From Sinomonas cyclohexanicum (GTDB taxonomy: Bacteria > Actinomycetota > Actinomycetes > Actinomycetales > Micrococcaceae): a stretch of DNA of 64,000 nt. The DNA is taken from the NCBI RefSeq assembly GCF_020886775.1, contig NZ_AP024525.1, forward strand, positions 930,001 to 994,000. Direction: 5' to 3'. Below are positions 46,276 to 64,000 of this stretch, piece by piece; position 1 is the stretch's first letter; the number at the start of each line of letters is the position of its first letter. The notes beneath the pieces were generated by a model. That model did no database searches, had not been told where the DNA came from, and worked only from the letters and a program-made list of their open reading frames with translations. A program made the position numbers and the translations under genes.

Positions 46276-47706
46276 TCACGGTGTGTCCGGTTCCGCGACG
46301 TGGAGGCGCCACGGGACGGTGGGCAGGGCGACGGTCCGGGCCACCTCGCCGTCGGGGGAGAAGATGTCCCCGACAAGACTGCCTGAGTTGGCGGCGATGA
46401 CGACGTCCATCTGGTCGACGATGCAGGATCCGACCGGCAGCAGCTCCAGGAACGGCGCGAACCGTTCCTGGAGGCGCGAGACCAGCACATCGGCCGCGGC
46501 GACGCCGACGGACCTGCCATCCTTCACGACGCGCTTGCTGAAGGTGACGAGGTACGCGTTGGAGCCGAGCGCATCGACGAAGGAGTAGCTCGTCTGGACG
46601 CCGCCCCGGTCATCCTTCGGCCACCATGGGGAGCTCGAATAGTCGTAGTACTGCAGATCCATCTCGAGCCTGCGGGGCGCCTGCTGGCCGACGGGCACGT
46701 AGGACCACACGATGCCCGTGTCCCCGAAGTACGTCGCGTCCGCGAGGAACCCGACCCCGTACAGGACAGACCGGGCCTCCTCCAGGGCCTCGAGGGTGAC
46801 GCCATAGACGCCCTCGAGCGAGTCCAGCCCGCCGTCCTTCGAGGAGTCGAGGGCGGCGAGGATGGCATCGTCGACGGCGCGGATCGCGGCAACCGCGGCC
46901 ATCTCGATCTCCACTGCGAGCGCCTCGATGGAGGCGATGATGCCGGGCTCGCCGCCGGCCGGCGGGGGAGCCTTCGCGGCCGGTCCCTCCATCGACATGC
47001 GCAGATCGATGAGGGCATTCATCTCGTGGCGGATGTGCTCTTCCGCGCGGGCGCGCGCGATGAGGGGGTCGCCGGCCTGGATCGCCTCCACGATCTCGGT
47101 GTGCTCCCGGGCCGCTCGGCGGCCGTCCCCGGCCGCGCTCGTCCAGATCAGCGGCCCGACCTCGGCCTGCAGCGCCATCTCCTGACGCGTGAGCCGGACG
47201 GACCTCGACGCGGCAGCAAGCTCGAGGTGGAACCGGCTGTCGGCCCGGGCCATGTCGGCCGGCTCGGTGGCGGTCTCGACCATGGCGCCGAGCGACAAGA
47301 GGCGCGCAACGGAGATCTGCTGTGGCCTCTCGGCAGCGGCCGCCGCCGCTGAGCCGGCCAGAACGGCACGGTATTCCCGGATGTCGCGGAGGCCGTCGAG
47401 CGTGTAGGCGGCGAGGGTGTCCCTGCGGGCCCGCGCGATATCTCCCGTGTTGGCCTTGACGAAGCTGCCGCCGCCCCGGCCCCGGCGCGTCTCCACGAGG
47501 CCGAGATGACGCAGCTCCGCCAAGGCTGCCCGCAGCGTCTGGGTCGAGACGCCCATCATGGCCGCGAGATCGTTCTCGCTCGGAAGCTGGGTCCCGTCTT
47601 CGAGGACGCCGAGCTCGATGGCATGGCGGATCCGGCGCCCGATCTCCTCGCCGCGCTCGGCGGTCTCGAGGGGAGCGAACGCGAGTTGTTCTCTCCACGT
47701 GCTCAT
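46276..47706 (-). CDS. GntR-FCD regulator fused to a Cache-type sensor domain
   Basis: This 476-residue protein has a GntR winged helix (residues about 20-80, QLPSENDLAAMMGVSTQTLR), an FCD-like helical domain (about 90-245) and an extra C-terminal region (about 255-470) with Cache/PDC features: YYDYSSSPWWP, GGVQTSYSFVDALGSNAYLV, TFSKRVVKDGRSVGVAAADV. Cache domains normally sense small molecules outside the cell in chemoreceptors; no transmembrane segment is visible, so sensing here would be cytoplasmic. The ATG at 47706 has GCAGGAGG. It is divergent from two small ORFs with a strong promoter, which it may control. Confidence 0.85.
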   Translation of the reverse strand: MSTWREQLAFAPLETAERGEEIGRRIRHAIELGVLEDGTQLPSENDLAAMMGVSTQTLRAALAELRHLGLVETRRGRGGGSFVKANTGDIARARRDTLAAYTLDGLRDIREYRAVLAGSAAAAAAERPQQISVARLLSLGAMVETATEPADMARADSRFHLELAAASRSVRLTRQEMALQAEVGPLIWTSAAGDGRRAAREHTEIVEAIQAGDPLIARARAEEHIRHEMNALIDLRMSMEGPAAKAPPPAGGEPGIIASIEALAVEIEMAAVAAIRAVDDAILAALDSSKDGGLDSLEGVYGVTLEALEEARSVLYGVGFLADATYFGDTGIVWSYVPVGQQAPRRLEMDLQYYDYSSSPWWPKDDRGGVQTSYSFVDALGSNAYLVTFSKRVVKDGRSVGVAAADVLVSRLQERFAPFLELLPVGSCIVDQMDVVIAANSGSLVGDIFSPDGEVARTVALPTVPWRLHVAEPDTP

Positions 47707-51491: not shown

Positions 51492-52883
51492 ATGACGGAC
51501 GCGTCCCCCGCCGCTGCCGGAATCCCTGCGGATGACGGCATCGCGGCGATCCTCGCCGCGCACCCCCGCGCCACCGCCGATCCCGAGGCCCTCCGGGCTG
51601 TGGCGACCGACCGCTCGGGCTACGTGCCCGCGACGCTGCCGGGCGCCGTCGTGCGCGCGCAGACGCACGACGACGTGTCCCTCGCCCTCCGCCTCGCACA
51701 CCGGCACGGGGTCGAGGTGGTCCCGCGCGGGGCGGGGACGGGCCTCGCGGGCGGCTCGAGCGCGCACGCGCGCCAGCTCGTGGTGGACGTCTCGCGGATG
51801 AACCGGATCCTGGACATCGACCCGGTGGAGATGATCGCGGTCGTGGAGCCGGGCGTGCTGAACGCCGAGGTCAACGCCGCCGTGGCCGGGCACGGCCTGT
51901 TCTACGCGCCGGACCCGGCGAGCACCGCGATCTGCTCGATCGGCGGGAACGTCGCGACGAACGCCGGCGGCATGTGGTGCGCCAAGTACGGGGTTACGCG
52001 CGAGTCGGTGCTGGGGCTGCGGGTGGTGCTCGCGGACGGCCGCGTGCTGAGGACGGGGCGGCGGACCATCAAGGGCGTCACGGGCTACGACCTCAACGCG
52101 CTGTTCATCGGCAGCGAGGGGACTCTCGGGATCGTGGTCGAGGCGACGCTGCGGCTGCGCCCGCGGCCGGTCCGCACGGAGACGCTCGCGGCGTACTTCG
52201 ACGACATCGAGGCCGCGGGACGCGCGGCCTCGGCCATCACTGCGGCGCGGATCCAGCCCTCGATCCTCGAGCTCATGGACGGGCCCACGCTCGAGGCCGT
52301 GGACCGGGCCCGCGGAACGCGCCACCGGGAGCTCGGCGGCGCGTTCCTGCTCGCGCAGACGGACGGCTACGGGGCGCACCTCGAGCTGGACGCGATCGCC
52401 GAGGCGATCGGTCCGCTCGCCTCGCACGTCCACAGGGCCGGGGATGACGCCGAGGCCGCGGCCCTCGTGCAGGCACGCCGGGACGCGATCCCGGCGCTCG
52501 AGCAGTTGGGCCGGGTCTCGATCGGGGACATCGCGGTGCCCCGCAATCGGCTCGCCGACGCGTTCGCGGGTCTCGCCGAGATCGCAGCGGCCACGGGCGT
52601 GCGGATCTTCTCGATCGCGCACGCTGCGGACGGCAACCTGCACCCCATGATCGTGGTCGAGCCGGACGAGTCGATCACCGAGGGCCCGGCGAAGGCCGCC
52701 CTCGGGGAGATGTTCCGACTGGCCCAGCGCCTCGGTGGCACGCTGACCGGCGAGCACGGCGTGGGGCTGCTCAAGCGTGAGTGGGTGGGGGAGGAACTGG
52801 GGGAACTCTCGCTCGAGCTGCAGCGGGCGGTGCGCGCGGCGTTCGACCCGTCGGGGATACTCAACCCGGGCAAGGCGATCTGA
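51492..52883 (+). CDS. FAD-binding oxidase, GlcD/D-lactate dehydrogenase type
   Basis: This 463-residue FAD_binding_4 enzyme has VVPRGAGTGLAGGSSAH, the FAD-contacting CSIGGNVATNAGGMWCAKYG and IKGVTGYDLNALFIGSEGTL, and the C-terminal LTGEHGVGLLKREW. It oxidises a 2-hydroxy acid (glycolate or D-lactate are usual). The ATG at 51492 has an AAGGAG site. It is 107 bases before the IolR-like operators and is probably a separate unit. Confidence 0.9.
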   Translation: MTDASPAAAGIPADDGIAAILAAHPRATADPEALRAVATDRSGYVPATLPGAVVRAQTHDDVSLALRLAHRHGVEVVPRGAGTGLAGGSSAHARQLVVDVSRMNRILDIDPVEMIAVVEPGVLNAEVNAAVAGHGLFYAPDPASTAICSIGGNVATNAGGMWCAKYGVTRESVLGLRVVLADGRVLRTGRRTIKGVTGYDLNALFIGSEGTLGIVVEATLRLRPRPVRTETLAAYFDDIEAAGRAASAITAARIQPSILELMDGPTLEAVDRARGTRHRELGGAFLLAQTDGYGAHLELDAIAEAIGPLASHVHRAGDDAEAAALVQARRDAIPALEQLGRVSIGDIAVPRNRLADAFAGLAEIAAATGVRIFSIAHAADGNLHPMIVVEPDESITEGPAKAALGEMFRLAQRLGGTLTGEHGVGLLKREWVGEELGELSLELQRAVRAAFDPSGILNPGKAI

Positions 52884-52901: not shown

Positions 52902-52917
52902 CTTTGTCAGGACAAAG
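52902..52917. promoter_or_regulatory. Putative IolR operator 1
   Basis: CTTTGTCAGGACAAAG is a perfect 7-2-7 dyad 73 bases before the tautomerase gene. It resembles TGTC-AN-GACA sites of inositol regulators. Confidence 0.65.
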
Positions 52918-52952
52918 TGTTGCCCTCGGAGCGTCCCTGGCCTAGTCTGAAT

Positions 52953-52966
52953 ATGTCAGTACAAAG
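52953..52966. promoter_or_regulatory. Putative IolR operator 2
   Basis: ATGTCAGTACAAAG is a degenerate copy of the 52902 site, 24 bases before the tautomerase ATG. Confidence 0.55.
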
Positions 52967-52989
52967 TTCCGAGCAAAGGTATCCCGCAC

Positions 52990-53394
52990 ATGCCCCTCGT
53001 CCGCATCGACGTCACCGCCGGCCGCACCCCTGAGCAGCTCTCCCGCATCAGCCGGGCGATCCACGAGGCGGTCCTGGCCGAGTACCGGATCCCCGAGCGC
53101 GACTACTTCCACATCATCACCGAGCATGCCCCCGGCCAGATCATCGCGCAGGATGCCGGACTCGGCTTCGAGCGCACGGGCGGCGTCGTGATGGTCCAGA
53201 TCTTCACGCAGGGCGGCCGCAGCCAGGAGGCGAAGGAGTCCCTGTTCGCGGCCGTCGCGGCGCGGCTCGCCGATGCCGGCATCCCCGGGGAGGACGTCTT
53301 CATCGGCTATGTCGAGAACGGCGCCGGCGACTGGTCCTTCGGGTTCGGCCGCGCCCAGTACATGACGGGCGAGCTCGCGGCCCCCGCGCGCTAG
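52990..53394 (+). CDS. 4-oxalocrotonate tautomerase-family protein
   Basis: This 134-residue protein has Pro2 after the initiator Met (MPLVRIDVTAGRTPEQLSRI), the catalytic N-terminal proline of the tautomerase superfamily after Met removal. The length and GFGRAQYMTGEL ending fit the malonate-semialdehyde-decarboxylase/cis-CaaD-like branch. It is bracketed by four IolR-like sites and precedes iolC, so a role on inositol intermediates (keto-enol or semialdehyde chemistry) is likely but unproven. Confidence 0.8.
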   Translation: MPLVRIDVTAGRTPEQLSRISRAIHEAVLAEYRIPERDYFHIITEHAPGQIIAQDAGLGFERTGGVVMVQIFTQGGRSQEAKESLFAAVAARLADAGIPGEDVFIGYVENGAGDWSFGFGRAQYMTGELAAPAR

Positions 53395-53397
53395 CCG

Positions 53398-53430
53398 AAT
53401 GTCAGAACAAACTTTTGACAGGACAATAAA
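53398..53430. promoter_or_regulatory. Putative IolR operators 3 and 4 before iolC
   Basis: AATGTCAGAACAAAC (53398-53412) and TTTTGACAGGACAATA (from 53413) are two more copies of the TGTC/GACA element, side by side and about 90 bases before iolC. Confidence 0.6.
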
Positions 53431-53515
53431 TCTGTAGCAGAGTGGACCTGTGGCCGACGCCACAGGCAGCGAAGCCGGCCCGGGACACCGGGCGTATCAG
53501 GAAGGGCACCGAGAC

Positions 53516-54503
53516 GTGACCTACGACCTTCTCACGATGGGACGCATCAGCGTCGACATCTACCCCAACGACATCGGCGTCGGACTGGCGGACGTGGAGA
53601 GCTTCGGCAAGTACCTGGGCGGCTCGCCGTCGAACGTCGCCGTCGCCGCGGCGCGGCACGGGCGCACGACGGCGGTCATCACCCGCACGGGCGACGACCC
53701 GTTCGGTGAGTACCTCCACCGCGAGCTGGCCAAGTTCGGCGTGGACGACCGGTACGTGGCCCCCGTGGCGGGCCTCCAGACCCCCGCGACGTTCTGCGCG
53801 ATCATGCCGGCCACGCACGAGTTCCCGCTCTACTTCTACGGCCGCTTCCCCACGGCCCCGGACCTGCAGATCCGCGCGGAAGAACTCGACCTCCGGGCCA
53901 TCCGGGACGCCCGCATCTTCTGGTCCACCGTGACCGGCCTGTGCCAGGAGCCGAGCCGCTCCGCGCACATTGCTGCCCACGAGGCCCGGCCGCGCGCCGG
54001 CCTTGCAGAGGGCCAGTTCACCATCCTCGACCTCGACTACCGCCCGATGTTCTGGGATTCCGAGGACGCCGCCCGCGAGCAGGTTGCCAAGGTCCTGCCG
54101 CACGTGACGGTCGCGATCGGCAACGAGGAGGAGTGCGCGGTCGCCGTCGGCTACGGAACCCCCGACGAGCAGGCCGACCGCCTCCTCGCGGCGGGCGTCG
54201 AGATCGCCGTGGTGAAACTCGGCCCCGAGGGCGTCATGGCGAAGACCCGCACCGAGCGCGTCGTCTCGGCCCCGGTCCCCGTCGAGACCCTCAACGGCCT
54301 CGGGGCCGGCGACTCGTTCGGCGGCGCGTTCTGCCACGGCCTCCTCTCCGGCTGGTCCCTCGCCCAGGTCCTCGACTACGCGAACGCCTCCGGCGCGATC
54401 GTTGCCTCGCGCCTCTCGTGCGCGGACGCGATGCCGACGCCGGCCGAGGACGTCGCTGCTGGCCGAACGCGGCCGCCTCGTCCCCGAGGCGGTGGCCCGG
54501 TGA
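53516..54503 (+). CDS. iolC: 5-dehydro-2-deoxygluconokinase, with a terminal indel
   Basis: This PfkB-family kinase (GRISVDIYPNDIGVGLADVE, LGGSPSNVAVAAARHG, LNGLGAGDSFGGAF with the catalytic Asp) phosphorylates 2-deoxy-5-keto-gluconate in inositol breakdown. Near 54448-54453 the frame changes: the normal tail SLLAERGRLVPEAVAR then TGA at 54501-54503 is read in another frame. As the sequence stands, the kinase frame runs without a stop into the next gene, giving one 672-residue kinase-aldolase polypeptide from GTG 53516. One extra base (or two missing) explains this. Confidence 0.85.
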
Positions 54504-55531
54504 CCACCGCTACGACTCCCGTGTCCTCCACCCCGCCCGCCCGCGCCGGCTCTGCCGTTCGGGGAACGTTCGACGGCGACCCCCGCCGCTACGAGTACCT
54601 CACCAAGATCCGGCTCGAGGACCCGCAGGCCGTGGCCCGCGCGGCCAAGGGCCGCCGCCGCCACCCCGGCCCCGTGCTGGGCAGGCAGAACTTCATCGTC
54701 GCTGCCGACCACCCCGCCCGCGGCGCCCTGGCCGCCCAGGGGCGGCCCGAGGCGATGGCTGACCGGCGCGAGCTGCTCGACCGGCTCCAGATCGCCCTCG
54801 CGAATCCCGCCGTGGACGGCGTCCTCGCGAGCCCGGACATCATGGATGACCTGCTGCTGCTCGGGGCCCTCGAGGGCAAGCTCGTCTTCGGCTCGATGAA
54901 CCGCGGCGGCCTTGCCGGGTTCGTCAATGAGTTCGACGACCGCTTCACGGGCCACACCGCCGAGGCCCTCGCGGCTCTGGGCGCGGACGGCGGCAAGATG
55001 CTCACGCGCATCGCGCTCGGCGACCCCGCGACCGCGTCGATCCTCGAGAGCACCGCCAAGGCCATCGATTCCCTCGCCGAGCGCGGCCTCATCGCCATGG
55101 TCGAGCCGTTCCTCTCGAACTGGGTCGACGGCAAGGTCAAGAACGACCTCTCCCCGGAGGCCGTGATCAAGTCCATCGGGATCGCGCAAGGACTCGGCTC
55201 GACGAGCGCTTACACGTGGATGAAGCTGCCCGTCGTCGACGAGATGGAGCGCGTCATGGCGGCCACGACCATGCCGACCGTGCTCCTCGGCGGCGACCCG
55301 ACCGGCCATCAGGACGAGGTCTTCGCCTCGTGGGGCCGTGCCCTCGCCCTGCCCGGTGTCCAGGGGCTCACCGTGGGCCGCACCCTGCTCTACCCGGCCG
55401 ACGGCGACGTGGCCGGTGCCGTCGCCGCCGCGGCGTCGCTGCTGCGGACCGAAGAAATCGCCCCAGAGGCCACAACACAGGCGCCCGTGGGCGCACCGGA
55501 TCGCACCACCGGCAAGGAGGCCGCACAGTGA
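54500..55531 (+). CDS. DUF2090/Cgl0158-type aldolase of the inositol pathway
   Basis: This 343-residue TIM-barrel protein (from GTG 54500) belongs to the DUF2090/deoxyribose-phosphate aldolase-like group (LLGALEGKLVFGSMNRGGLA, VEPFLSNWVDGKVKNDLSPE, AYTWMKLPVVDEMERVM). It probably cleaves 2-deoxy-5-keto-gluconate 6-phosphate to DHAP and malonate semialdehyde in place of IolJ. Some bacteria carry a natural IolC-DUF2090 fusion. Here the GTGA overlap with the expected iolC stop indicates two genes. It overlaps iolD. Confidence 0.8.
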   Translation: MTTATTPVSSTPPARAGSAVRGTFDGDPRRYEYLTKIRLEDPQAVARAAKGRRRHPGPVLGRQNFIVAADHPARGALAAQGRPEAMADRRELLDRLQIALANPAVDGVLASPDIMDDLLLLGALEGKLVFGSMNRGGLAGFVNEFDDRFTGHTAEALAALGADGGKMLTRIALGDPATASILESTAKAIDSLAERGLIAMVEPFLSNWVDGKVKNDLSPEAVIKSIGIAQGLGSTSAYTWMKLPVVDEMERVMAATTMPTVLLGGDPTGHQDEVFASWGRALALPGVQGLTVGRTLLYPADGDVAGAVAAAASLLRTEEIAPEATTQAPVGAPDRTTGKEAAQ

Positions 55532-57492
55532 CCACTCGCAGGATGACCGTTGCCCAGGCGCTCGTGGAGTTCCTCGGCCGCCAGTACACGGTTGATACCG
55601 TCGGGGGGCCTGATGGGGGCGCGTACAGGGAGCGCCTCATCCCCGGGATGTTCGGAATCTTCGGTCACGGCAACGTGGCCGGCGTGGGCCAGGCGCTCAA
55701 GCAGTGGCAGGCCGCGGACCCGACGCTCATGCCGTACTACCAGGGCCGCAACGAGCAGGCCCAGTCGCACCAGGCCGTCGGCTACGCCCGTCACACGCGC
55801 CGCCGCCAGACGTTTGCCGTCTCGACGTCGATCGGCCCCGGCTCGTCCAACCTGCTCACCGGCGCGGCGCTCGCCACGGCGAACCGCCTCCCGGTCCTGC
55901 TCCTGCCCTCGGACACGTTCGCGACGCGTGCCGCGGACCCGGTCCTGCAGCAGCTCGAGCAGCCGCATGGGTACGACATCACGGTCAACGACGCGTTCCG
56001 GCCGCTCTCGAAGTACTTCGACCGGGTCAACCGGCCGGAGCAGCTCTTCTCGGCGCTCCTGAATGGCCTGCGCGTCCTCACGGACCCGGCCGAGACCGGC
56101 GCCGTGACGATCGCGCTGCCGCAGGACGTCCAGGCCGAGGCGTTCGACGTGCCCGTCGAGTTCCTCGCCGAGCGCGAGTGGCGCATCCGCCGCCCCGAGC
56201 CCGAGGCCGAGGACATCGCCGAGGCGGCCCGCCGCATCCGCGCCGCGAAGCGCCCTGTCATCATCGCCGGCGGCGGTGTGCTGTACGCGTTCGCCACGGA
56301 CCAGCTCCGGGAGTTCGCCGAGGCGACCGGCATCCCCGTCGGGTGGACCCAGGCCGGCGTCGGCTCCCTCGCCTGGGACCACCCCCAGGCGGTCGGAGCG
56401 GTCGGTTCCACGGGCACCACGGCCGCGAACGCGCTTCTGCGCGATGCGGACCTCGTGATCGGGATCGGAACGCGCTACGAGGACTTCACCACGGCATCCC
56501 GCACGGCGTTCCAGCACGACGGCGTGAGCTTCGTGAACATCAACGTCGCCGCGATCGACGCCTACAAGCACGGCACCTCGCTGCCGATCGTCGCCGACGC
56601 CCGCAAGGCACTCGCCGGGCTCACGACGGCGCTGGGCGGCTACCGTGTCGGCGTGGAACTCGAGCGGGTGGTCGCCGACGAGAAGGCGGCCTGGGACGAC
56701 ACGGTCGACTCGGCGTTCGCCCAGGACGACGAGCCGCTCGTGTCGCAGAACGCGATCATCGGCGCGGTCAACCGCACGATGGACCCGCGCGACGTGGTGG
56801 TCTGCGCCGCCGGCTCGCTGCCCGGCGACCTGCACAAGATGTGGCGCGTCCGCGATCCGTTCGGCTACCACGTCGAGTACGGGTTCTCGTGCATGGGCTA
56901 CGAGATCCCCGGCGGGCTGGGCGTCAAGCGCGCGGCGCTCGACGCTGCTGCTCGCGGCGGAGACGGCAGGGAGGACAACCGCGACGTCGTCGTCATGGTC
57001 GGCGACGGCTCGTACCTCATGATGCACACCGAACTCGTCACCGCGGTCGCGGAGGGCATCAAGCTCATCACCGTGCTTATCCAGAACCATGGCTACGCCT
57101 CGATCGGCGCGCTGTCCGAATCCCTCGGCTCGCAGCGCTTCGGCACGAAGTACCGAACCCTCGACCGGGAGCACCACACATTCGACGACGGGGACAAGCT
57201 CCCGATTGACCTCGCCACGAACGCCGAGAGTCTCGGCGTCACCGTGTACCGGATCGAGCCCGGGCCCAACGCGATCGCCGACCTCGAGGCAGCCCTCGGG
57301 AAGGCCAAGGCCGCACCCGAGGGCTCGGGCCCGATCGTGATCCACATCGAGTCGGACCCGCTCATCGACGCACCGAGCTCCGAGTCCTGGTGGGACGTGC
57401 CCGTCTCCGGTGCCTCCGAACTCGAGTCCACCCAGAAGGCCTTCGAGGTCTACGCCGACCACAAGAGCCGCCAGCGGCCGCTGCTCGGGTGA
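55528..57492 (+). CDS. iolD: 3D-(3,5/4)-trihydroxycyclohexane-1,2-dione hydrolase
   Basis: This 654-residue ThDP-dependent enzyme has IPGMFGIFGHGNVAGVGQAL, the catalytic Glu-type region GRNEQAQSHQAVGYAR, and the ThDP/metal motif VVMVGDGSYLMMHTELVTAV. It opens the ring of the trione from scyllo-inosose dehydration. GTG 55528 overlaps the preceding stop (GTGA), and AAGGAGG precedes it. Confidence 0.95.
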   Translation: MTTRRMTVAQALVEFLGRQYTVDTVGGPDGGAYRERLIPGMFGIFGHGNVAGVGQALKQWQAADPTLMPYYQGRNEQAQSHQAVGYARHTRRRQTFAVSTSIGPGSSNLLTGAALATANRLPVLLLPSDTFATRAADPVLQQLEQPHGYDITVNDAFRPLSKYFDRVNRPEQLFSALLNGLRVLTDPAETGAVTIALPQDVQAEAFDVPVEFLAEREWRIRRPEPEAEDIAEAARRIRAAKRPVIIAGGGVLYAFATDQLREFAEATGIPVGWTQAGVGSLAWDHPQAVGAVGSTGTTAANALLRDADLVIGIGTRYEDFTTASRTAFQHDGVSFVNINVAAIDAYKHGTSLPIVADARKALAGLTTALGGYRVGVELERVVADEKAAWDDTVDSAFAQDDEPLVSQNAIIGAVNRTMDPRDVVVCAAGSLPGDLHKMWRVRDPFGYHVEYGFSCMGYEIPGGLGVKRAALDAAARGGDGREDNRDVVVMVGDGSYLMMHTELVTAVAEGIKLITVLIQNHGYASIGALSESLGSQRFGTKYRTLDREHHTFDDGDKLPIDLATNAESLGVTVYRIEPGPNAIADLEAALGKAKAAPEGSGPIVIHIESDPLIDAPSSESWWDVPVSGASELESTQKAFEVYADHKSRQRPLLG

Positions 57493-57559: not shown

Positions 57560-59059
57560 ATGACCATCAAGACCATCCCGCATTACCTCAACGGTGAGGA
57601 GACCAACGGCTCCGGCGAGCGGACGCAGGCGGTGTTCAACCCGGCCACGGGTGAGCAGACCGGCGAGCTGCGGCTCGCGGATGCCGCGGACCTGGAGACC
57701 GCGGTTGCGAACGCCCGCAAGGCCGCGGATTCGTGGGGGGACATCTCCCTGGCCAAGCGGACCGCGGTGCTGTTCCGGTTCCGTGAGCTCGTCGCGGCGC
57801 ACGTCGATCAGCTGGCCGAGCTCGTGACCTCCGAGCACGGCAAGGTGATCTCGGACGCGAAGGGCGAGATCGGCCGCGGCCTGGAGGTCGTGGAGTTCGC
57901 GTGCGGGATCCCGCAGCTTCTCAAGGGCGCCTACTCGGACCAGGCCTCGACCGGGATCGACGTGTTCTCCTACCGCCAGCCGGTCGGGGTCGTTGCGGGC
58001 ATCACCCCGTTCAACTTCCCGGTGATGGTGCCGCTGTGGATGGCCCCGGTGGCGATCGCCACGGGCAACGCGTTCATCCTCAAGCCCTCCGAGCGGGACC
58101 CCTCCGCCTCGATGCTGCTGGCCAGGCTGTGGACCGAGGCAGGCCTGCCGGACGGTGTGTTCCAGGTCCTGCACGGCGGGAAGGAGACCGTGGACGGGCT
58201 CCTGACGCATCCGGACGTGGACGCGATCTCGTTCGTGGGCTCGACCCCAATCGCGAAGTACGTTCAGGAGACGGCCACGGCGCACGGCAAGCGCGTCCAG
58301 GCCCTGGGCGGGGCGAAGAACCACGCGATCATCCTCCCGGACGCGGACCTGGACAACGCCGCGGACCACCTCTCGGCCGCCGCCTTCGGCTCCGCCGGGG
58401 AGCGGTGCATGGCGATCTCCGTGGCCATCGCGGTCGGGCAGATCGGCGACGACCTCGTGGGCAAGGTCGCCGAGCGGGCCGAGGCGGTCAAGGTTGCCGA
58501 GGGCACCGAGCCGGACGCGGAGATGGGCCCGATCATCACCGCCGCCTCCAAGGAGCGGATGAAGGGCATCGTCACGGCCGCGGCCGAGTCCGGGGCCGAG
58601 CTCGTGGTGGACGGGCGCGAGTTCACCGTGCCCGGCAAGGAGGGCGGCTTCTGGTTCGGCCCGACCGTGATCGACAAGGTCGCCACGGACACCCAGGCGT
58701 ACACCGAGGAGATCTTCGGCCCCGTCCTGGCGGTGGTGCGGGTCGAGACGGTCGAGGAGGCCATCGAGCTGATCAACGCCAATCCCTACGGTAACGGCAC
58801 CGCGATCTTCACCTCCTCCGGCTCCAACGCCCGCAAGTTCCACCGCGGCGTGCACGTGGGCATGATCGGGGTCAACGTCCCGATCCCCGTCCCCGTCGCG
58901 TACCACTCCTTCGGCGGATGGAAGGACTCCCTCTTCGGCGACACGCACATCTACGGCGAGGAAGGCGTGGCCTTCTACACCCGCGGCAAGGTCATCACCC
59001 AGCGCTGGCCCGAGCCCACCCACGCCTCCGGCGCCTCCTACAACTTCCCGTCCAACTGA
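57560..59059 (+). CDS. mmsA: Methylmalonate/malonate semialdehyde dehydrogenase (CoA-acylating)
   Basis: This 499-residue aldehyde dehydrogenase has the family's ITPFNFPVMVPLWMAPVAIA, LGGAKNHAIILPDADLDNAA and catalytic cysteine FGSAGERCMAIS. It converts malonate semialdehyde to acetyl-CoA (IolA role), the exit of the inositol pathway. The ATG at 57560 has a CAGGAGCAAGAGC leader. Gap to iolD is 67 bases. Confidence 0.95.
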   Translation: MTIKTIPHYLNGEETNGSGERTQAVFNPATGEQTGELRLADAADLETAVANARKAADSWGDISLAKRTAVLFRFRELVAAHVDQLAELVTSEHGKVISDAKGEIGRGLEVVEFACGIPQLLKGAYSDQASTGIDVFSYRQPVGVVAGITPFNFPVMVPLWMAPVAIATGNAFILKPSERDPSASMLLARLWTEAGLPDGVFQVLHGGKETVDGLLTHPDVDAISFVGSTPIAKYVQETATAHGKRVQALGGAKNHAIILPDADLDNAADHLSAAAFGSAGERCMAISVAIAVGQIGDDLVGKVAERAEAVKVAEGTEPDAEMGPIITAASKERMKGIVTAAAESGAELVVDGREFTVPGKEGGFWFGPTVIDKVATDTQAYTEEIFGPVLAVVRVETVEEAIELINANPYGNGTAIFTSSGSNARKFHRGVHVGMIGVNVPIPVPVAYHSFGGWKDSLFGDTHIYGEEGVAFYTRGKVITQRWPEPTHASGASYNFPSN

Positions 59060-59082
59060 GCGCAGCCGCGCGGAGGAACACC

Positions 59083-60006
59083 ATGACCGAGAACAAGCTC
59101 ATCATCGGCACGGCCCCCGACTCGTGGGGCGTGTGGTTCGCCGACGACCCGAAGCAGACCCCGTGGGAGCGCTTCCTGGACGAGGTGGTCGAGGCCGGGT
59201 ACAAGTGGATCGAGCTCGGCCCGTACGGCTATCTCCCCACCGACCCCTCCCGCCTCGCCGACGAGCTCAAGGCCCGCGACCTCAAGGTTTCCGCGGGCAC
59301 CGTGTTCACCGCGTTCCACCGCGGCGGCCGGCCTGGGGACGCTGCCTTCGAGGAGGCATGGGAGCCCGCCCGCCGGGTCGCCGAGCTGACGGCGGCAATC
59401 GGCGGCGAGCACATCGTCGTCATCCCCGCGATGTGGCGCGACGACGTCACGGGCCAGGCCCTCGAGAACCAGGTCCTCACCGGCGAGCAGTGGGACGCGC
59501 TGTTCAACGGGCACGACGAGCTGGGCCGCCGCCTCTGGGAGGACTTCGGCCTGAAGCAGCAGTTCCACTCGCATGCCGACTCGCACGTGCTCACCCAGAC
59601 GGACATCGAGACGCTCCTGAAGAACACTGACCCTGCGCTGCTCAACCTGTGCCTCGACACGGGCCACGCCGAGTACGGCGGCGCGTCCAGCGTGGACCTC
59701 ATCCGCAAGTACCCCGAGCGCATCGGCTACCTGCACCTCAAGCAGGTGGACCCGGGCGTCATGGAGCGGGTCCGCGCGGAGAACCTCACCTTCGCCGCGG
59801 CGAACACGGCCGGCGTCATGACCGAGCCCCCCGGCGGCCTGCCGGACCTGCGCGAGGTCATCGAGGAGGTCGAGAAGCTCGACCGCCCGATCTTCGGCAT
59901 CGTCGAGCAGGACATGTACCCCGTCGCGTTCGACGTCCCGCTCCCGATCGCCAAGCGCACCCGCAACTACCTCCTCTCCTGCGGCTCCCGCACGCGAGTG
60001 GCCTGA
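59083..60006 (+). CDS. iolE: Myo-inosose-2 dehydratase
   Basis: This 307-residue TIM-barrel protein of the xylose-isomerase-like fold starts with IIGTAPDSWGVWFADDPKQT, exactly the IolE pattern, and holds metal ligands in QQFHSHADSHVLT and LCLDTGHAEYGG. It dehydrates scyllo-inosose to the trione. CGGAGG precedes the ATG. Confidence 0.95.
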   Translation: MTENKLIIGTAPDSWGVWFADDPKQTPWERFLDEVVEAGYKWIELGPYGYLPTDPSRLADELKARDLKVSAGTVFTAFHRGGRPGDAAFEEAWEPARRVAELTAAIGGEHIVVIPAMWRDDVTGQALENQVLTGEQWDALFNGHDELGRRLWEDFGLKQQFHSHADSHVLTQTDIETLLKNTDPALLNLCLDTGHAEYGGASSVDLIRKYPERIGYLHLKQVDPGVMERVRAENLTFAAANTAGVMTEPPGGLPDLREVIEEVEKLDRPIFGIVEQDMYPVAFDVPLPIAKRTRNYLLSCGSRTRVA

Positions 60007-60045
60007 TCCATTCCTTCCACCAAGAGCCCCAGAAAGGCAGATCCC

Positions 60046-61098
60046 ATGGCTGAGAACCTGCGCGTCGCCGTCATCGGCGCCGGCCGCATGGGCGCGGACC
60101 ACATCCAGCGCCTGCACACGCGCATCCACGGCGCCGAGGTGGCCGCCGTGATCGACATCGACCTCGACCGCGCCAACGCCGCGATCGCTGACATCCCCGG
60201 AGCGAGGGCGTACGCCACGGCGGCCGAGGCCTACTCTGTTGATCCCTCCTCCGGCGGCGTGAACGCGGTCCTCATCGCCACGCCCGGCTTCCTCCACGAG
60301 GTCGCCCTCCTCGAGGCCCTCGAGCGGGACATCCCGATCCTGTGCGAGAAGCCGCTCACCCCGGACGCCGCCTCGGCCTGGAAGATCGTCGAGGCGGAGC
60401 AGAAGCTCGGCCACCAGCGCATCCAGGTGGGGTTCATGCGCCGCTTCGACCAGGGCTACATGGACCTCGGCGGCCTGGTCCGCTCGGGCGAGCTCGGCGA
60501 GCTGCTCATGCTCCACTGCCGCCACCGCAACCCGGACACCCCGGCCGGCTTCACGAACGAGATGCTCATCAACGACTCGGTGGTCCACGAGTTCGACGCG
60601 ATCCGCTACCTGACCGGTGAGGAGATCACGTCCGTGCAGGTCCGCCTCGGCAAGGCGACCTCGAAGGCGCCGAACGGCCAGCACGATCCGCAGCACGTCC
60701 TCATCGAGACGGCCTCGGGCGTCCTCGTCGACGTCGAGATCTTCGTCAACGCCCAGTTCGGCTACCAGGTCGCGACCGAGGCCGCGTTCGAGGACGGCAT
60801 CGTCACGATCGGCGGCGACGGCGGTCCCTACATCCGTCGCGCCGGCCGCTGGGGCGGCGCGGTCACCCCCGGCTTCGAGGCCCGCTTCGGTGCCGCGTAC
60901 GACGTCGAGGTCCAGTCGTGGGTCGACGCCGCCCTCCGGGGCGAGATCGGCGGCCCCTCCGCCTGGGACGGCTATGCCACCGCTGCCTGCTGCGAAGCGG
61001 GAGTCGAGGCGCAGAAGAGCGGCGAGAAGGTCGCAGTCATGCTCAATGAGAAGCCTGCGCTCTACAGCGCGGGCGAGGCCAAGGGGCAGGGCAAGTGA
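60046..61098 (+). CDS. iolG: Inositol 2-dehydrogenase
   Basis: This 350-residue Gfo/Idh/MocA oxidoreductase has VIGAGRMGADHIQRL, the EKPLTPDAASAW catalytic lysine motif and a C-terminal sheet domain with GFMRRFDQGYMDLG. It oxidises myo-inositol to scyllo-inosose with NAD. It is the first enzymatic step though sixth in the gene order. The stop overlaps iolH (GTGA). Confidence 0.95.
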   Translation: MAENLRVAVIGAGRMGADHIQRLHTRIHGAEVAAVIDIDLDRANAAIADIPGARAYATAAEAYSVDPSSGGVNAVLIATPGFLHEVALLEALERDIPILCEKPLTPDAASAWKIVEAEQKLGHQRIQVGFMRRFDQGYMDLGGLVRSGELGELLMLHCRHRNPDTPAGFTNEMLINDSVVHEFDAIRYLTGEEITSVQVRLGKATSKAPNGQHDPQHVLIETASGVLVDVEIFVNAQFGYQVATEAAFEDGIVTIGGDGGPYIRRAGRWGGAVTPGFEARFGAAYDVEVQSWVDAALRGEIGGPSAWDGYATAACCEAGVEAQKSGEKVAVMLNEKPALYSAGEAKGQGK

Positions 61099-61979
61099 AG
61101 CTCGCGCTCGATCCCACCCCGTTCCACTCGACGCACTCGCTCCTCGAGTTCCCCGCCCTCGCCGCGGAGCTCGGGTACGAGTACCTTCAGATGACTCCGC
61201 ACCGGGACTTCATCCCGTTCTTCACGCACCCCAAGGCCGACGACGAGCTGGTCCGCCAGTTCCGCAAGGCGTGCGCTGACGCGGGCGTCGAGGTGGCCTC
61301 GGTGCTGCCGGTGCTGCGCTGGTCCGGCCCGGACGAGTGGGCCCGCGAGGCCGCCGTGCGGTACTGGAAGCGCGCCGTCCAGATCACCGTCGACCTCGGC
61401 GTGAACCAGATGAACACCGAGTTCTCCGGCCGTCCCGAGCGCCCCGAGGAGTCCGAGGCGGCGTTCTACCGGTCCATGGAGGAGCTCGTGCCGGTCTTCG
61501 AGCGCGAGGGCGTCCACGTGGCGATCGACCCGCACCCGGACGACTTCGTCGAGGAGGGCCTCGCCGCCCTGCGCGTGATCCGCGGGATCAACTCGCCGAA
61601 CGTGGGCATGGTCTACGTCGCGTCGCACACGTTCCACATGGGCGACGCGCCCCTTGACATCATGCGCGCGGCGGGGGAGCGGATCCGCGTGGTCCACGTC
61701 TCCGACACGATGAACCACCACGCCTCCCACGGCCTGCGGTACATCACGAACCCGCCGGGCAACGAGGTGCGGGTGCACCAGCACCTCAGGATCGGTGACG
61801 GCGACGTGAACTGGGACGAGTTCTTCTCCGGCTTGGGCGAGATCGGCTTCCTGGACCGCGACGACACAGTCATGGTCTCCTCAGTCTTCGCCGAGAACGA
61901 GAACGCCGACGAGGTCTCCCGCTACCAGCTCGCCGAGATGAAGGACCGGGTGGCCAAGGCCAAGGCCGCCAAGGCATAG
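61095..61979 (+). CDS. iolH: IolH-like sugar phosphate isomerase/epimerase
   Basis: This 294-residue TIM-barrel protein begins MKLALDPTPFHSTHSLLEF, close to corynebacterial/Bacillus IolH, with potential metal ligands in VAIDPHPDDFVEEG and VVHVSDTMNHH. Its exact reaction is not established for the family. GTG 61095 overlaps iolG. It ends the + strand iol operon. Confidence 0.85.
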   Translation: MKLALDPTPFHSTHSLLEFPALAAELGYEYLQMTPHRDFIPFFTHPKADDELVRQFRKACADAGVEVASVLPVLRWSGPDEWAREAAVRYWKRAVQITVDLGVNQMNTEFSGRPERPEESEAAFYRSMEELVPVFEREGVHVAIDPHPDDFVEEGLAALRVIRGINSPNVGMVYVASHTFHMGDAPLDIMRAAGERIRVVHVSDTMNHHASHGLRYITNPPGNEVRVHQHLRIGDGDVNWDEFFSGLGEIGFLDRDDTVMVSSVFAENENADEVSRYQLAEMKDRVAKAKAAKA

Positions 61980-63304: not shown

Positions 63305-63322
63305 GGTTGGTGTACCCGAGAT
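63305..63322. repeat. Right flank repeat of the lipoprotein gene
   Basis: GGTTGGTGTACCCGAGAT is the exact inverse of 62029-62046; it abuts the iolB stop codon. Confidence 0.75.
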
Positions 63323-64000
63323 CAGGCGGTGAAGGGCAGGCGCGGGTCGACCTGCTGGGAGTCCCAGGTCGAGCGGATCCAGCCGTGGTGCGGGTCGTCG
63401 CTGATGAGCCACTCGCGCACGCGGCCCGGTCCGGCCATGACGTTGAGGTAGTACAGGTCGTAGCCCGGCGCGGCCATCGCGGGGCCGTGCCAGCCGTAGG
63501 GGACGAGCACGACGTCGCCCGTGCGCACCTCTGCGTTGACGTCGATGGGCCGCTCGTCCGAGGCATACACGCGCGCGTACCCCACAGGGTCCTGCCCAGC
63601 CGCCCGCGCGTCCCCGGTCGGGGAGCCGGGCGCGAGGCGCGTTTCGAAGTAGTAGACCTCCTCGAGGAAGGTCTCGCCGTCCTTCTCCTCGTCGTGCTTG
63701 TGCGGCGGGTAGGAGGACCAGTTGCCCGCCGGCGTGATGACCTCGCACACGATGAAGCGGTCCGCCTCGAGCGCGGCGGGAGTGCCGAAGTTGTGCACCT
63801 GGCGCGAGCAGTTCCCGGCCCCGCGCAGCTCCACGGGGGTCTCCTCGGCCCGGATCAGGCGTGTGGGGTACGCGGCGCTGGCGGGGGCGAGCGCGACGGC
63901 GACCCGGCCGCCGTCGTGCGAGCGGATCTCCGCGGCCTTCCCGATCCCCGTGTAGAGCACGTCGCTCGGGCCCGCGAAGACCGAGCCGCGGCCACGCAGG
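63322..64000 (-). CDS. iolB: 5-deoxy-glucuronate isomerase, partial (5' end outside window)
   Basis: The frame runs from the right edge of the window to the stop at 63322, giving about 226 residues. It reads GRGSVFAGPSDVLYTGIGKA, the middle of the IolB N-terminal cupin, and later WSSYPPHKHDEEKDGETFLE with the metal-binding histidines and VLVPYGWHGPAMAAPGYDLY. The true start lies beyond 64000; an internal GTG at 63960 is not the start. It isomerises 5-deoxy-glucuronate to 2-deoxy-5-keto-gluconate, between IolD and IolC. It is on the opposite strand from the other iol genes. Confidence 0.9.
   Translation of the reverse strand, partial: LRGRGSVFAGPSDVLYTGIGKAAEIRSHDGGRVAVALAPASAAYPTRLIRAEETPVELRGAGNCSRQVHNFGTPAALEADRFIVCEVITPAGNWSSYPPHKHDEEKDGETFLEEVYYFETRLAPGSPTGDARAAGQDPVGYARVYASDERPIDVNAEVRTGDVVLVPYGWHGPAMAAPGYDLYYLNVMAGPGRVREWLISDDPHHGWIRSTWDSQQVDPRLPFTA

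What the first reader, a model, noticed from the sequence alone, without database searches (positions are those of the whole stretch)
52902..53430. Tautomerase brought into the inositol regulon
Four TGTC/GACA dyads surround a tautomerase-family gene between an FAD oxidase and iolC; the first is a perfect 7-2-7 repeat. A tautomerase is not a standard iol enzyme; with catalytic Pro2 it could speed keto-enol steps or act on malonate semialdehyde. No iolR gene is in the window, so the regulator acts from elsewhere.
Basis: partly seen in the sequence, partly recalled or inferred. Interest (0 to 1): 0.5.

Follow-up and report, generated by a model that had tools for sequence, protein, structure and literature searches.

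The report
Malonate-semialdehyde decarboxylase of inositol regulon
A small decarboxylase-type gene sits at the head of the inositol-degradation genes of soil actinobacteria and carries its own copies of the inositol control sites, which suggests a side exit for the reactive aldehyde made when inositol is broken down.

Summary
Four TGTC/GACA dyads flank a 134-aa tautomerase-superfamily gene (52990-53394) directly upstream of iolC, and the first is a perfect 7-2-7 repeat. The regulon claim also holds at sequence level. The gene is directly upstream of iolC in 80 of 80 close relatives fetched, and 80 of 80 carry a dyad upstream of it. Eight of the genome's 22 best sites cluster at this locus, one at the promoter of a GntR/UTRA regulator gene 281 bp beyond the window edge, so the likely regulator is next door. 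The protein is a malonate semialdehyde decarboxylase (MSAD) of the FG41 type: 54% identity, nine signature residues kept. The most likely role is an inducible exit for the malonate semialdehyde made by the iol aldolase. IolA is co-encoded, so this is an accessory branch and not a missing step. An MSAD in an iol operon has a precedent, Lactobacillus casei IolK. New here are the actinobacterial form, its own operators, and a second MSAD sub-clade placed before iolC in another family. Activity, regulator binding and induction are inferred.

The parts
52990..53394 (+). tautomerase-superfamily gene, FG41-type malonate semialdehyde decarboxylase (134 aa, Pro after the start Met)
   Evidence: Tautomerase_2 E 1.3e-28; FG41 MSAD 3mjz E 5.1e-43; 9 signature residues kept. 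NCBIfam gave only tautomerase matches below their cut-offs
52902..52917 (.). operator O1, perfect 7-2-7 dyad CTTTGTC-AG-GACAAAG, just upstream of a weak -35-like TTGCCC (52920-52925, my reading)
   Evidence: eight Sinomonas loci also have two upstream dyads 48-49 bp apart
52952..52965 (.). operator O2, starting 3 bp after a weak -10-like TAGTCT (52943-52948, my reading) and ending 24 bp before the start codon
   Evidence: a dyad upstream of the gene in 80 of 80 relatives
53398..53411 (.). operator O3 (3 mismatches), just after the tautomerase stop codon, in the iolC promoter region
   Evidence: same place in the aligned consensus of 55 relatives
53414..53427 (.). operator O4, overlapping a TTGACA -35-like box of the likely iolC promoter
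   Evidence: same 16-bp spacing to O3 in the consensus of 55 relatives
53516..54499 (+). iolC, 5-dehydro-2-deoxygluconokinase (its frame runs into the next gene here)
   Evidence: TIGR04382 349 bits over a cut-off of 300, scanned as ORF 53450-55528
54500..55531 (+). Cgl0159-like aldolase, the likely step that makes malonate semialdehyde
   Evidence: PF22649 E 1.6e-118; role inferred
55528..57492 (+). iolD
   Evidence: TIGR04377 820 bits over a cut-off of 715
57560..59059 (+). iolA, CoA-acylating (methyl)malonate-semialdehyde dehydrogenase: the competing fate of malonate semialdehyde
   Evidence: TIGR01722 700 bits over a cut-off of 448.5
59080..61979 (+). iolE-, iolG- and iolH-like genes downstream
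   Evidence: NCBIfam matches are below their curated cut-offs; names rest on best match and position
63322..63960 (-). iolB, which continues past the window end; the GntR/UTRA regulator gene follows at genome C1:994281-995021
   Evidence: KduI/IolB E 1e-65; GntR + UTRA domains; sequence

Best explanation
The gene is an IolR-repressed malonate semialdehyde decarboxylase (an IolK-like enzyme of the FG41 sub-type). Inositol breakdown ends with the aldolase, which releases DHAP and malonate semialdehyde, a reactive 3-oxo acid. IolA turns that into acetyl-CoA. The tautomerase-fold enzyme would decarboxylate the excess to acetaldehyde and CO2, using Pro1 with Asp37, Gln73, Arg76 and Tyr123, and so would act as an inducible CoA- and NAD-independent exit. 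The GntR/UTRA regulator encoded about 11 kb downstream would bind the dyads, which lie over the promoter regions of this gene, of iolC, of its own gene and of transport and dehydrogenase genes beyond, and would release them when inositol is present. Shown here: family, residues, synteny and operator-like sites. Inferred: substrate, which regulator binds, direction of control, inducer, physiological role.
For: Best solved relatives are FG41 MSAD (E 5.1e-43) and Pseudomonas MSAD (E 1.7e-25). Eight of nine signature positions are kept in 81 of 81 iol-linked proteins and Pro1 in 80 of 81. The gene is directly upstream of iolC, same strand, in 80 of 80 named loci, gap 45-261 bp. In 197 genomes of the family it occurs in 46 of 75 with iolD and 0 of 122 without. 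A dyad lies upstream in 80 of 80 and in the 200 bp after the gene in 59 of 80, at 5.3 and 4.4 per kb against 0.015 per kb in the rest of the same loci. Where the gene sits away from iolC but in the iol locus, a dyad lies within about 50 bp upstream of it in G163, G062 and G160, and iolC keeps its own dyads in G163 and G062. A second MSAD sub-clade sits directly upstream of iolC in G425 and in 9 of 9 further genomes of that genus examined. The regulator's own promoter region carries a dyad.
Against: No assay, expression or binding data exist here for this organism. IolA is in the same cluster (79 of 80 loci; the last is cut by its contig end), so no pathway step is missing. 29 of 75 iolD genomes in the family lack the gene; the six of them that I fetched keep iolC and a dyad before it. 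In G161 (47% identity, linked) no dyad lies within 200 bp upstream of the gene, and in G106 (64%) and G085 (42%), where it is not on the iolD contig, none with up to 2 mismatches was found in the stretch. Of 25 loci outside the family found with the window protein, 24 show no iol cluster nearby. The regulator matches no iol-specific NCBIfam model; its best matches are PhnF and HutC, below their cut-offs. The consensus promoter scan found nothing. Counts are not corrected for relatedness.
Confidence: 0.7

Rival explanations
1. The enzyme is a true tautomerase or hydratase of a pathway intermediate, for instance speeding the enol-keto step of the IolE product (trihydroxycyclohexane-1,2-dione) or an open-chain form between IolD and IolB.
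For: It has the tautomerase fold with Pro1, and the iol pathway has several enolisable intermediates (recalled).
Against: The residues listed for FG41 MSAD in PMC10606566 (Asp37, Thr72, Gln73, Arg76, Tyr123) and the wall residues listed there for MSADs (Trp114, Phe116, Leu128) are invariant in 81 of 81 iol-linked proteins. The gene is missing from 29 of 75 iolD genomes, so such a step would have to be dispensable.
Confidence: 0.15
2. A general detoxifying or haloacrylate-type MSAD that merely lives at the iol locus and serves other sources of malonate semialdehyde (for example beta-alanine or halogenated C3 acids).
For: MSADs are discussed with 1,3-dichloropropene degradation (the FG41 context is recalled), and relatives of 55-60% identity in other families (G403, G508, G574) are not iol-linked.
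Against: Co-occurrence with iolD and its own conserved iol-type dyads in the home family.
Confidence: 0.1
3. The dyads bind a regulator other than the neighbouring GntR/UTRA protein, for example one of the LacI-family proteins encoded nearby.
For: One strong site lies about 25 bp before a LacI-family gene, between it and a Gfo/Idh dehydrogenase gene, at C1:1014497. The GntR/UTRA protein matches no iol-specific model.
Against: Separate palindromes such as GGAACGTTCC, of the kind LacI proteins bind (recalled), stand next to the dyads. A dyad is also at the GntR gene's own promoter, and GTC-N2-GAC dyads are typical of the GntR/HutC group (recalled).
Confidence: 0.12

Closest known systems
IolK of the Lactobacillus casei BL23 iol operon
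   Same: An MSAD-family enzyme encoded inside an inositol operon; listed among MSADs in PMC10606566 and as an L. casei iol gene in PMC2530867 (passages seen).
   Different: It belongs to a Firmicute operon; the window gene heads an actinobacterial cluster and has its own dyads. The original L. casei paper is not held.
FG41 malonate semialdehyde decarboxylase (PDB 3mjz, 3mlc, 4lho, 4lhp)
   Same: 54% identity; all nine signature residues P1, D37, T72, Q73, R76, W114, F116, Y123, L128.
   Different: Studied in a haloalkene-degradation setting, with no iol linkage known to me (recalled).
Pseudomonas pavonaceae MSAD (PDB 2aag, 2aal)
   Same: Same family, Pro1, Asp37, Trp114, Phe116, Leu128.
   Different: 36% identity; uses the Arg73/Arg75 pair and Phe123, of which only the second Arg has a counterpart here.
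IolR regulon of Corynebacterium glutamicum (GntR type)
   Same: A GntR-type repressor of inositol genes (title of Klaffl 2013, seen in a reference list); a TG(T/A)C...ACA motif is recalled.
   Different: The published motif (recalled as KGWCHTRACA) differs at a central base from the dyads here and could not be checked (one search found no paper). The two regulator proteins were not compared.

Membership tests
Tautomerase superfamily, MSAD subgroup, FG41 type | Pro as first residue after Met | tested here: met
   Window protein MPLVRID...; 80 of 81 iol-linked proteins; the exception is L085, whose other iol genes are read in many pieces
Tautomerase superfamily, MSAD subgroup, FG41 type | Asp37, Trp114, Phe116, Leu128 | tested here: met
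   81 of 81; residue list from PMC10606566
Tautomerase superfamily, MSAD subgroup, FG41 type | Thr72, Gln73, Arg76, Tyr123 in place of the Arg73/Arg75 pair | tested here: met
   81 of 81. The second sub-clade (G425, G161) differs here: Thr/Phe72, His/Gln73, Arg76, Phe123
Tautomerase superfamily, MSAD subgroup, FG41 type | Decarboxylation of malonate semialdehyde | not testable with these tools
   Needs an enzyme assay
IolK (MSAD of an iol operon) | MSAD-family gene within an inositol catabolic cluster | tested here: met
   80 of 80 loci
IolK (MSAD of an iol operon) | Orthology to L. casei IolK | not tested
Inositol (IolR) regulon | Operator-like sites shared with other iol genes and with the candidate regulator's own promoter | tested here: met
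Inositol (IolR) regulon | The neighbouring GntR/UTRA protein is IolR | tested here: inconclusive
   GntR and UTRA domains; no iol-specific NCBIfam model, best PhnF/HutC below cut-offs; position and dyad fit
Inositol (IolR) regulon | Binding by IolR and induction by inositol | not testable with these tools
   Needs binding and expression experiments

The most novel reading that the evidence does not exclude
Inositol catabolism is a native job of actinobacterial MSADs: at least two sub-clades of the family were drawn separately into iol regulons, each placed before iolC, giving aerobic soil actinobacteria a CoA-free acetaldehyde exit beside IolA. The MSADs known from haloalkene degradation may have been borrowed from such stock.
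Probability: 0.35. Interest if true: 0.5.

Novelty: new member of a known kind. Interest (0 to 1): 0.4.

Why it matters
MSADs are known mainly from the breakdown of man-made halogenated fumigants, and their natural role is often unclear (recalled). A widespread, regulon-bound MSAD in inositol degradation gives a natural substrate source that can be tested directly. It also predicts a branch point (acetyl-CoA or acetaldehyde) at the end of the inositol pathway in Arthrobacter, Sinomonas and relatives.

Tried and rejected
Considered and set aside: (1) a chance cluster of dyads, against (0 of 100 shuffles); (2) the MSAD replacing a missing IolA: IolA is in the window and in 79 of 80 loci; (3) the FAD oxidase as part of the unit: 3 of 80 loci hold it; (4) the GntR-FCD regulator in the window (46279-47706) as IolR: it has FCD and Cache-type matches and the only dyad-like match there is a 3-mismatch one inside its coding region (47450), whereas the GntR/UTRA gene has one before its start; (5) the strong site at C1:277063, which lies inside the start of a YbhB-like gene (my reading of the translation), probably chance. 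A site at C1:3404189 near a DAHP synthase gene was not pursued, nor were the other 13 weaker sites outside the locus.

Led nowhere: the promoter scan (nothing at its thresholds); the literature searches for the C. glutamicum motif and for tautomerase or MSAD with inositol, which, judged by titles and starts of abstracts, listed no paper on such a link in actinobacteria in the open-licence library. The iol survey PMC9430895 has no occurrence of 'tautomerase', 'malonate semialdehyde' or 'decarboxylase' in its main text. No structure was predicted, because solved homologues at 54% identity exist.

Errors of mine, corrected: (a) the iolC probe was translated one base out of frame (start 53517 instead of 53516; 4 stops). 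With the right probe the gene is directly upstream of iolC in 29 of 30 loci (not L046), 80 of 80, 1 of 25 (G425), 1 of 18 stretches (G425) and 9 of 19, so the conclusions stand. (b) One search prints 35 of 46 adjacent to iolD; it missed G152, whose second iolD copy masked the first, so the figure is 36 of 46. Of the other ten, seven (G122, G062, G176, G163, G160, G184, G161) have iolD on the same contig at 4.6-13.3 kb, and three (G106, G085, G169) do not. G085 and G169 are only 42% identical. G122, G176 and G184 were not read for dyads.

Full report
WHAT IS THERE. The window is C1:930001-994000 of a 4.41-Mb single-contig genome. Its nearest named relatives are Sinomonas and Arthrobacter. At 52990-53394 (+) lies a 134-aa gene; flanking it are an FAD-linked oxidase (51492-52883) and iolC (from 53516), followed by a Cgl0159-like aldolase, iolD, iolA, and iolE/iolG/iolH-like genes, with iolB on the other strand. 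iolC, iolD and iolA exceed their NCBIfam cut-offs; the iolE, iolG and iolH matches do not and are named by best match and position.

DYADS. Four copies of a TTTGTC-N2-GACAAA dyad flank the gene: 52903 (0 mismatches, perfect 7-2-7 with the outer bases), 52952 (2), 53398 (3), 53414 (2). The window search gave 6 rows against a shuffle mean of 0.69, and 0 of 100 shuffles reached 6. In the whole genome 22 places match with up to 2 mismatches against 7 for the reversed pattern. Eight of the 22 lie between C1:982903 and C1:1014510; for a stretch of that length the binomial chance is 2e-12, though the stretch was chosen after the fact. Besides the three at the tautomerase, these eight are before a GntR/UTRA regulator gene (995081; about 60 bp before its start), before a substrate-binding protein of a sugar ABC transporter (995228), before two Gfo/Idh dehydrogenase genes (998485, 1001748), and between a LacI-family gene and a third Gfo/Idh gene (1014497) (the transporter and dehydrogenase names are my reading of the translations). 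The regulator gene, C1:994281-995021 on the minus strand, begins 281 bp past the window's edge, so 'the regulator acts from elsewhere' is replaced by 'the likely regulator is in the same locus'. NCBIfam has no iol-specific match for it; its best matches, PhnF and HutC, are below their cut-offs, so the name IolR rests on position, domains and the dyads.

CONSERVATION. A search of public genomes returned the best 80 of 253 related loci. In 80 of 80 the gene is directly upstream of iolC on the same strand, 45-261 bp away (repeated with a correctly framed iolC probe), and the aldolase and iolD follow; iolA was found in 79 of 80, the remaining locus being cut off after iolD. The 80 are the closest relatives, so this is a conserved arrangement within Micrococcaceae and not 80 independent events. 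In a sample of 197 genomes of the family, 46 have the gene at E <= 1e-10, 75 have iolD over its cut-off, and all 46 are among the 75 (0 of 122 without iolD; not corrected for relatedness). In 36 of 46 it lies within 2.6 kb upstream of iolD on the same strand (35 by the script plus G152, see Tried and rejected).

OPERATORS IN RELATIVES. With up to 2 mismatches, a dyad lies within 200 bp upstream of the gene in 80 of 80 loci, its first base mostly 28-42 bp before the start codon, and in the 200 bp after the gene in 59 of 80. The rates are 5.3 and 4.4 per kb against 0.015 per kb (23 in 1.5 Mb) in the rest of the same loci. The aligned consensus of the 80 upstream regions shows the dyad overlapping a TAGTAT -10-like element, and the consensus of 55 iolC promoters shows two dyads 16 bp apart, the second holding TTGACA. 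This is the layout of a repressor. The consensus-promoter scan of the window itself found nothing at its thresholds, so the window's -35/-10 boxes are my reading of weak matches.

NATURAL EXPERIMENTS. I read six genomes in which the gene is not next to iolC. In three a dyad lies just upstream of it: G163 and G062 (35 bp before the start, iolC keeping its own dyads) and G160 (a perfect dyad about 50 bp before the start, in a stretch shared with a diverging IolR-like gene). In three it does not: G161 (47% identity; a 2-mismatch dyad more than 500 bp away, nearer to iolE), and G106 and G085, where the gene is not on the iolD contig. Six of the 29 genomes with iolD but without the gene were fetched (G104, G037, G177, G028, G195, G142); all six keep iolC with a dyad of at most 2 mismatches before it. 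So the gene is accessory, and its operators are its own.

WHAT THE PROTEIN IS. The best matches among solved structures are FG41 MSAD (E 5.1e-43) and Pseudomonas MSAD (E 1.7e-25). Identity is 54% and 36%. Of the residues named for MSADs in PMC10606566 (passages), Asp37, Thr72, Gln73, Arg76, Trp114, Phe116, Tyr123 and Leu128 are in 81 of 81 iol-linked proteins and Pro1 in 80 of 81. Malonate semialdehyde is the product of the aldolase step of inositol breakdown (established pathway knowledge, recalled), so an MSAD here has an obvious substrate. IolA uses the same substrate, hence the reading as a side exit or overflow valve.

WIDER PICTURE. In a sample of 394 genomes of the class, 28 have a match. 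Of the 25 loci outside the family, one (G425) has the gene directly upstream of iolC; the other 24 show no iol gene within about 1.5 kb beyond a 28% aldehyde-dehydrogenase match in L146, and some of these loci are cut short by contig ends. G425 belongs to another family of the order; its iolC is confirmed by TIGR04382 (381 bits, cut-off 300). Its MSAD falls in a separate sub-clade (support 96/89) with that of G161 of the home family, which is also iol-linked, but also with three from other families (L132, L133, L134) for which no iol gene was seen nearby. The FG41-type group as a whole has support 91/83 only. Searching 297 genomes of the order with the G425 protein gave 34 with a match, 23 of them outside the home family. 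Besides G425 I examined 19 of those 23 (not G665, G788, G796). In 9 of 9 from G425's own genus the gene is directly upstream of iolC (in G779 it is read in two overlapping pieces); in G699 of another family it follows iolG- and iolH-like genes; the other nine show no iol core gene within 1.5 kb, four of them only a Gfo/Idh-like neighbour. A dyad of at most 2 mismatches lies between the gene and iolC in G425 and in 7 of those 9. Separate recruitment is the simplest reading, but the tree is unrooted and many forks are unresolved.

PRECEDENT AND NOVELTY. PMC10606566 lists IolK of L. casei BL23 among studied MSADs, and PMC2530867 names iolK as part of the L. casei iol operon. I saw only these passages; the original papers that I asked for are not held. 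So an MSAD in an iol cluster is known in kind. I found no paper in the open-licence library that describes it for actinobacteria (listings only), which says nothing about subscription journals. The finding is best filed as a new, well-supported and widespread member of a known kind, with a regulatory arrangement that makes the natural function of FG41-type MSADs testable.

Noticed in passing
window 54449-54450 (iolC 3' end): Compared with 6 of 6 relatives displayed (13 loci matched), 2 bases are missing near the end of iolC, which changes its last residues and joins its frame to the aldolase as one 693-aa ORF (53450-55531). Real fusion or sequencing error cannot be told.
   Followed up: partly
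window 46279-47706 (-): GntR-FCD regulator with a C-terminal Cache-type match in one protein (GntR 20-78, FCD 108-226, dCache 315-448, the last below its cut-off). It recurs in 3 of 80 related loci.
   Followed up: no
genome C1:998485, 1001748, 1014497 (L015, L011): Gfo/Idh-like dehydrogenase genes carry both an iol-type dyad and, close by, a palindrome such as GGAACGTTCC or GGAGCGCTCC of the sort LacI proteins bind (recalled), hinting at dual control.
   Followed up: no
window 52903-52965 and Sinomonas loci L047, L048, L050, L051, L052, L054, L055, L057: Two upstream dyads lie 48-49 bp apart in these eight loci and in the window, a spacing that might allow cooperative binding or looping.
   Followed up: no
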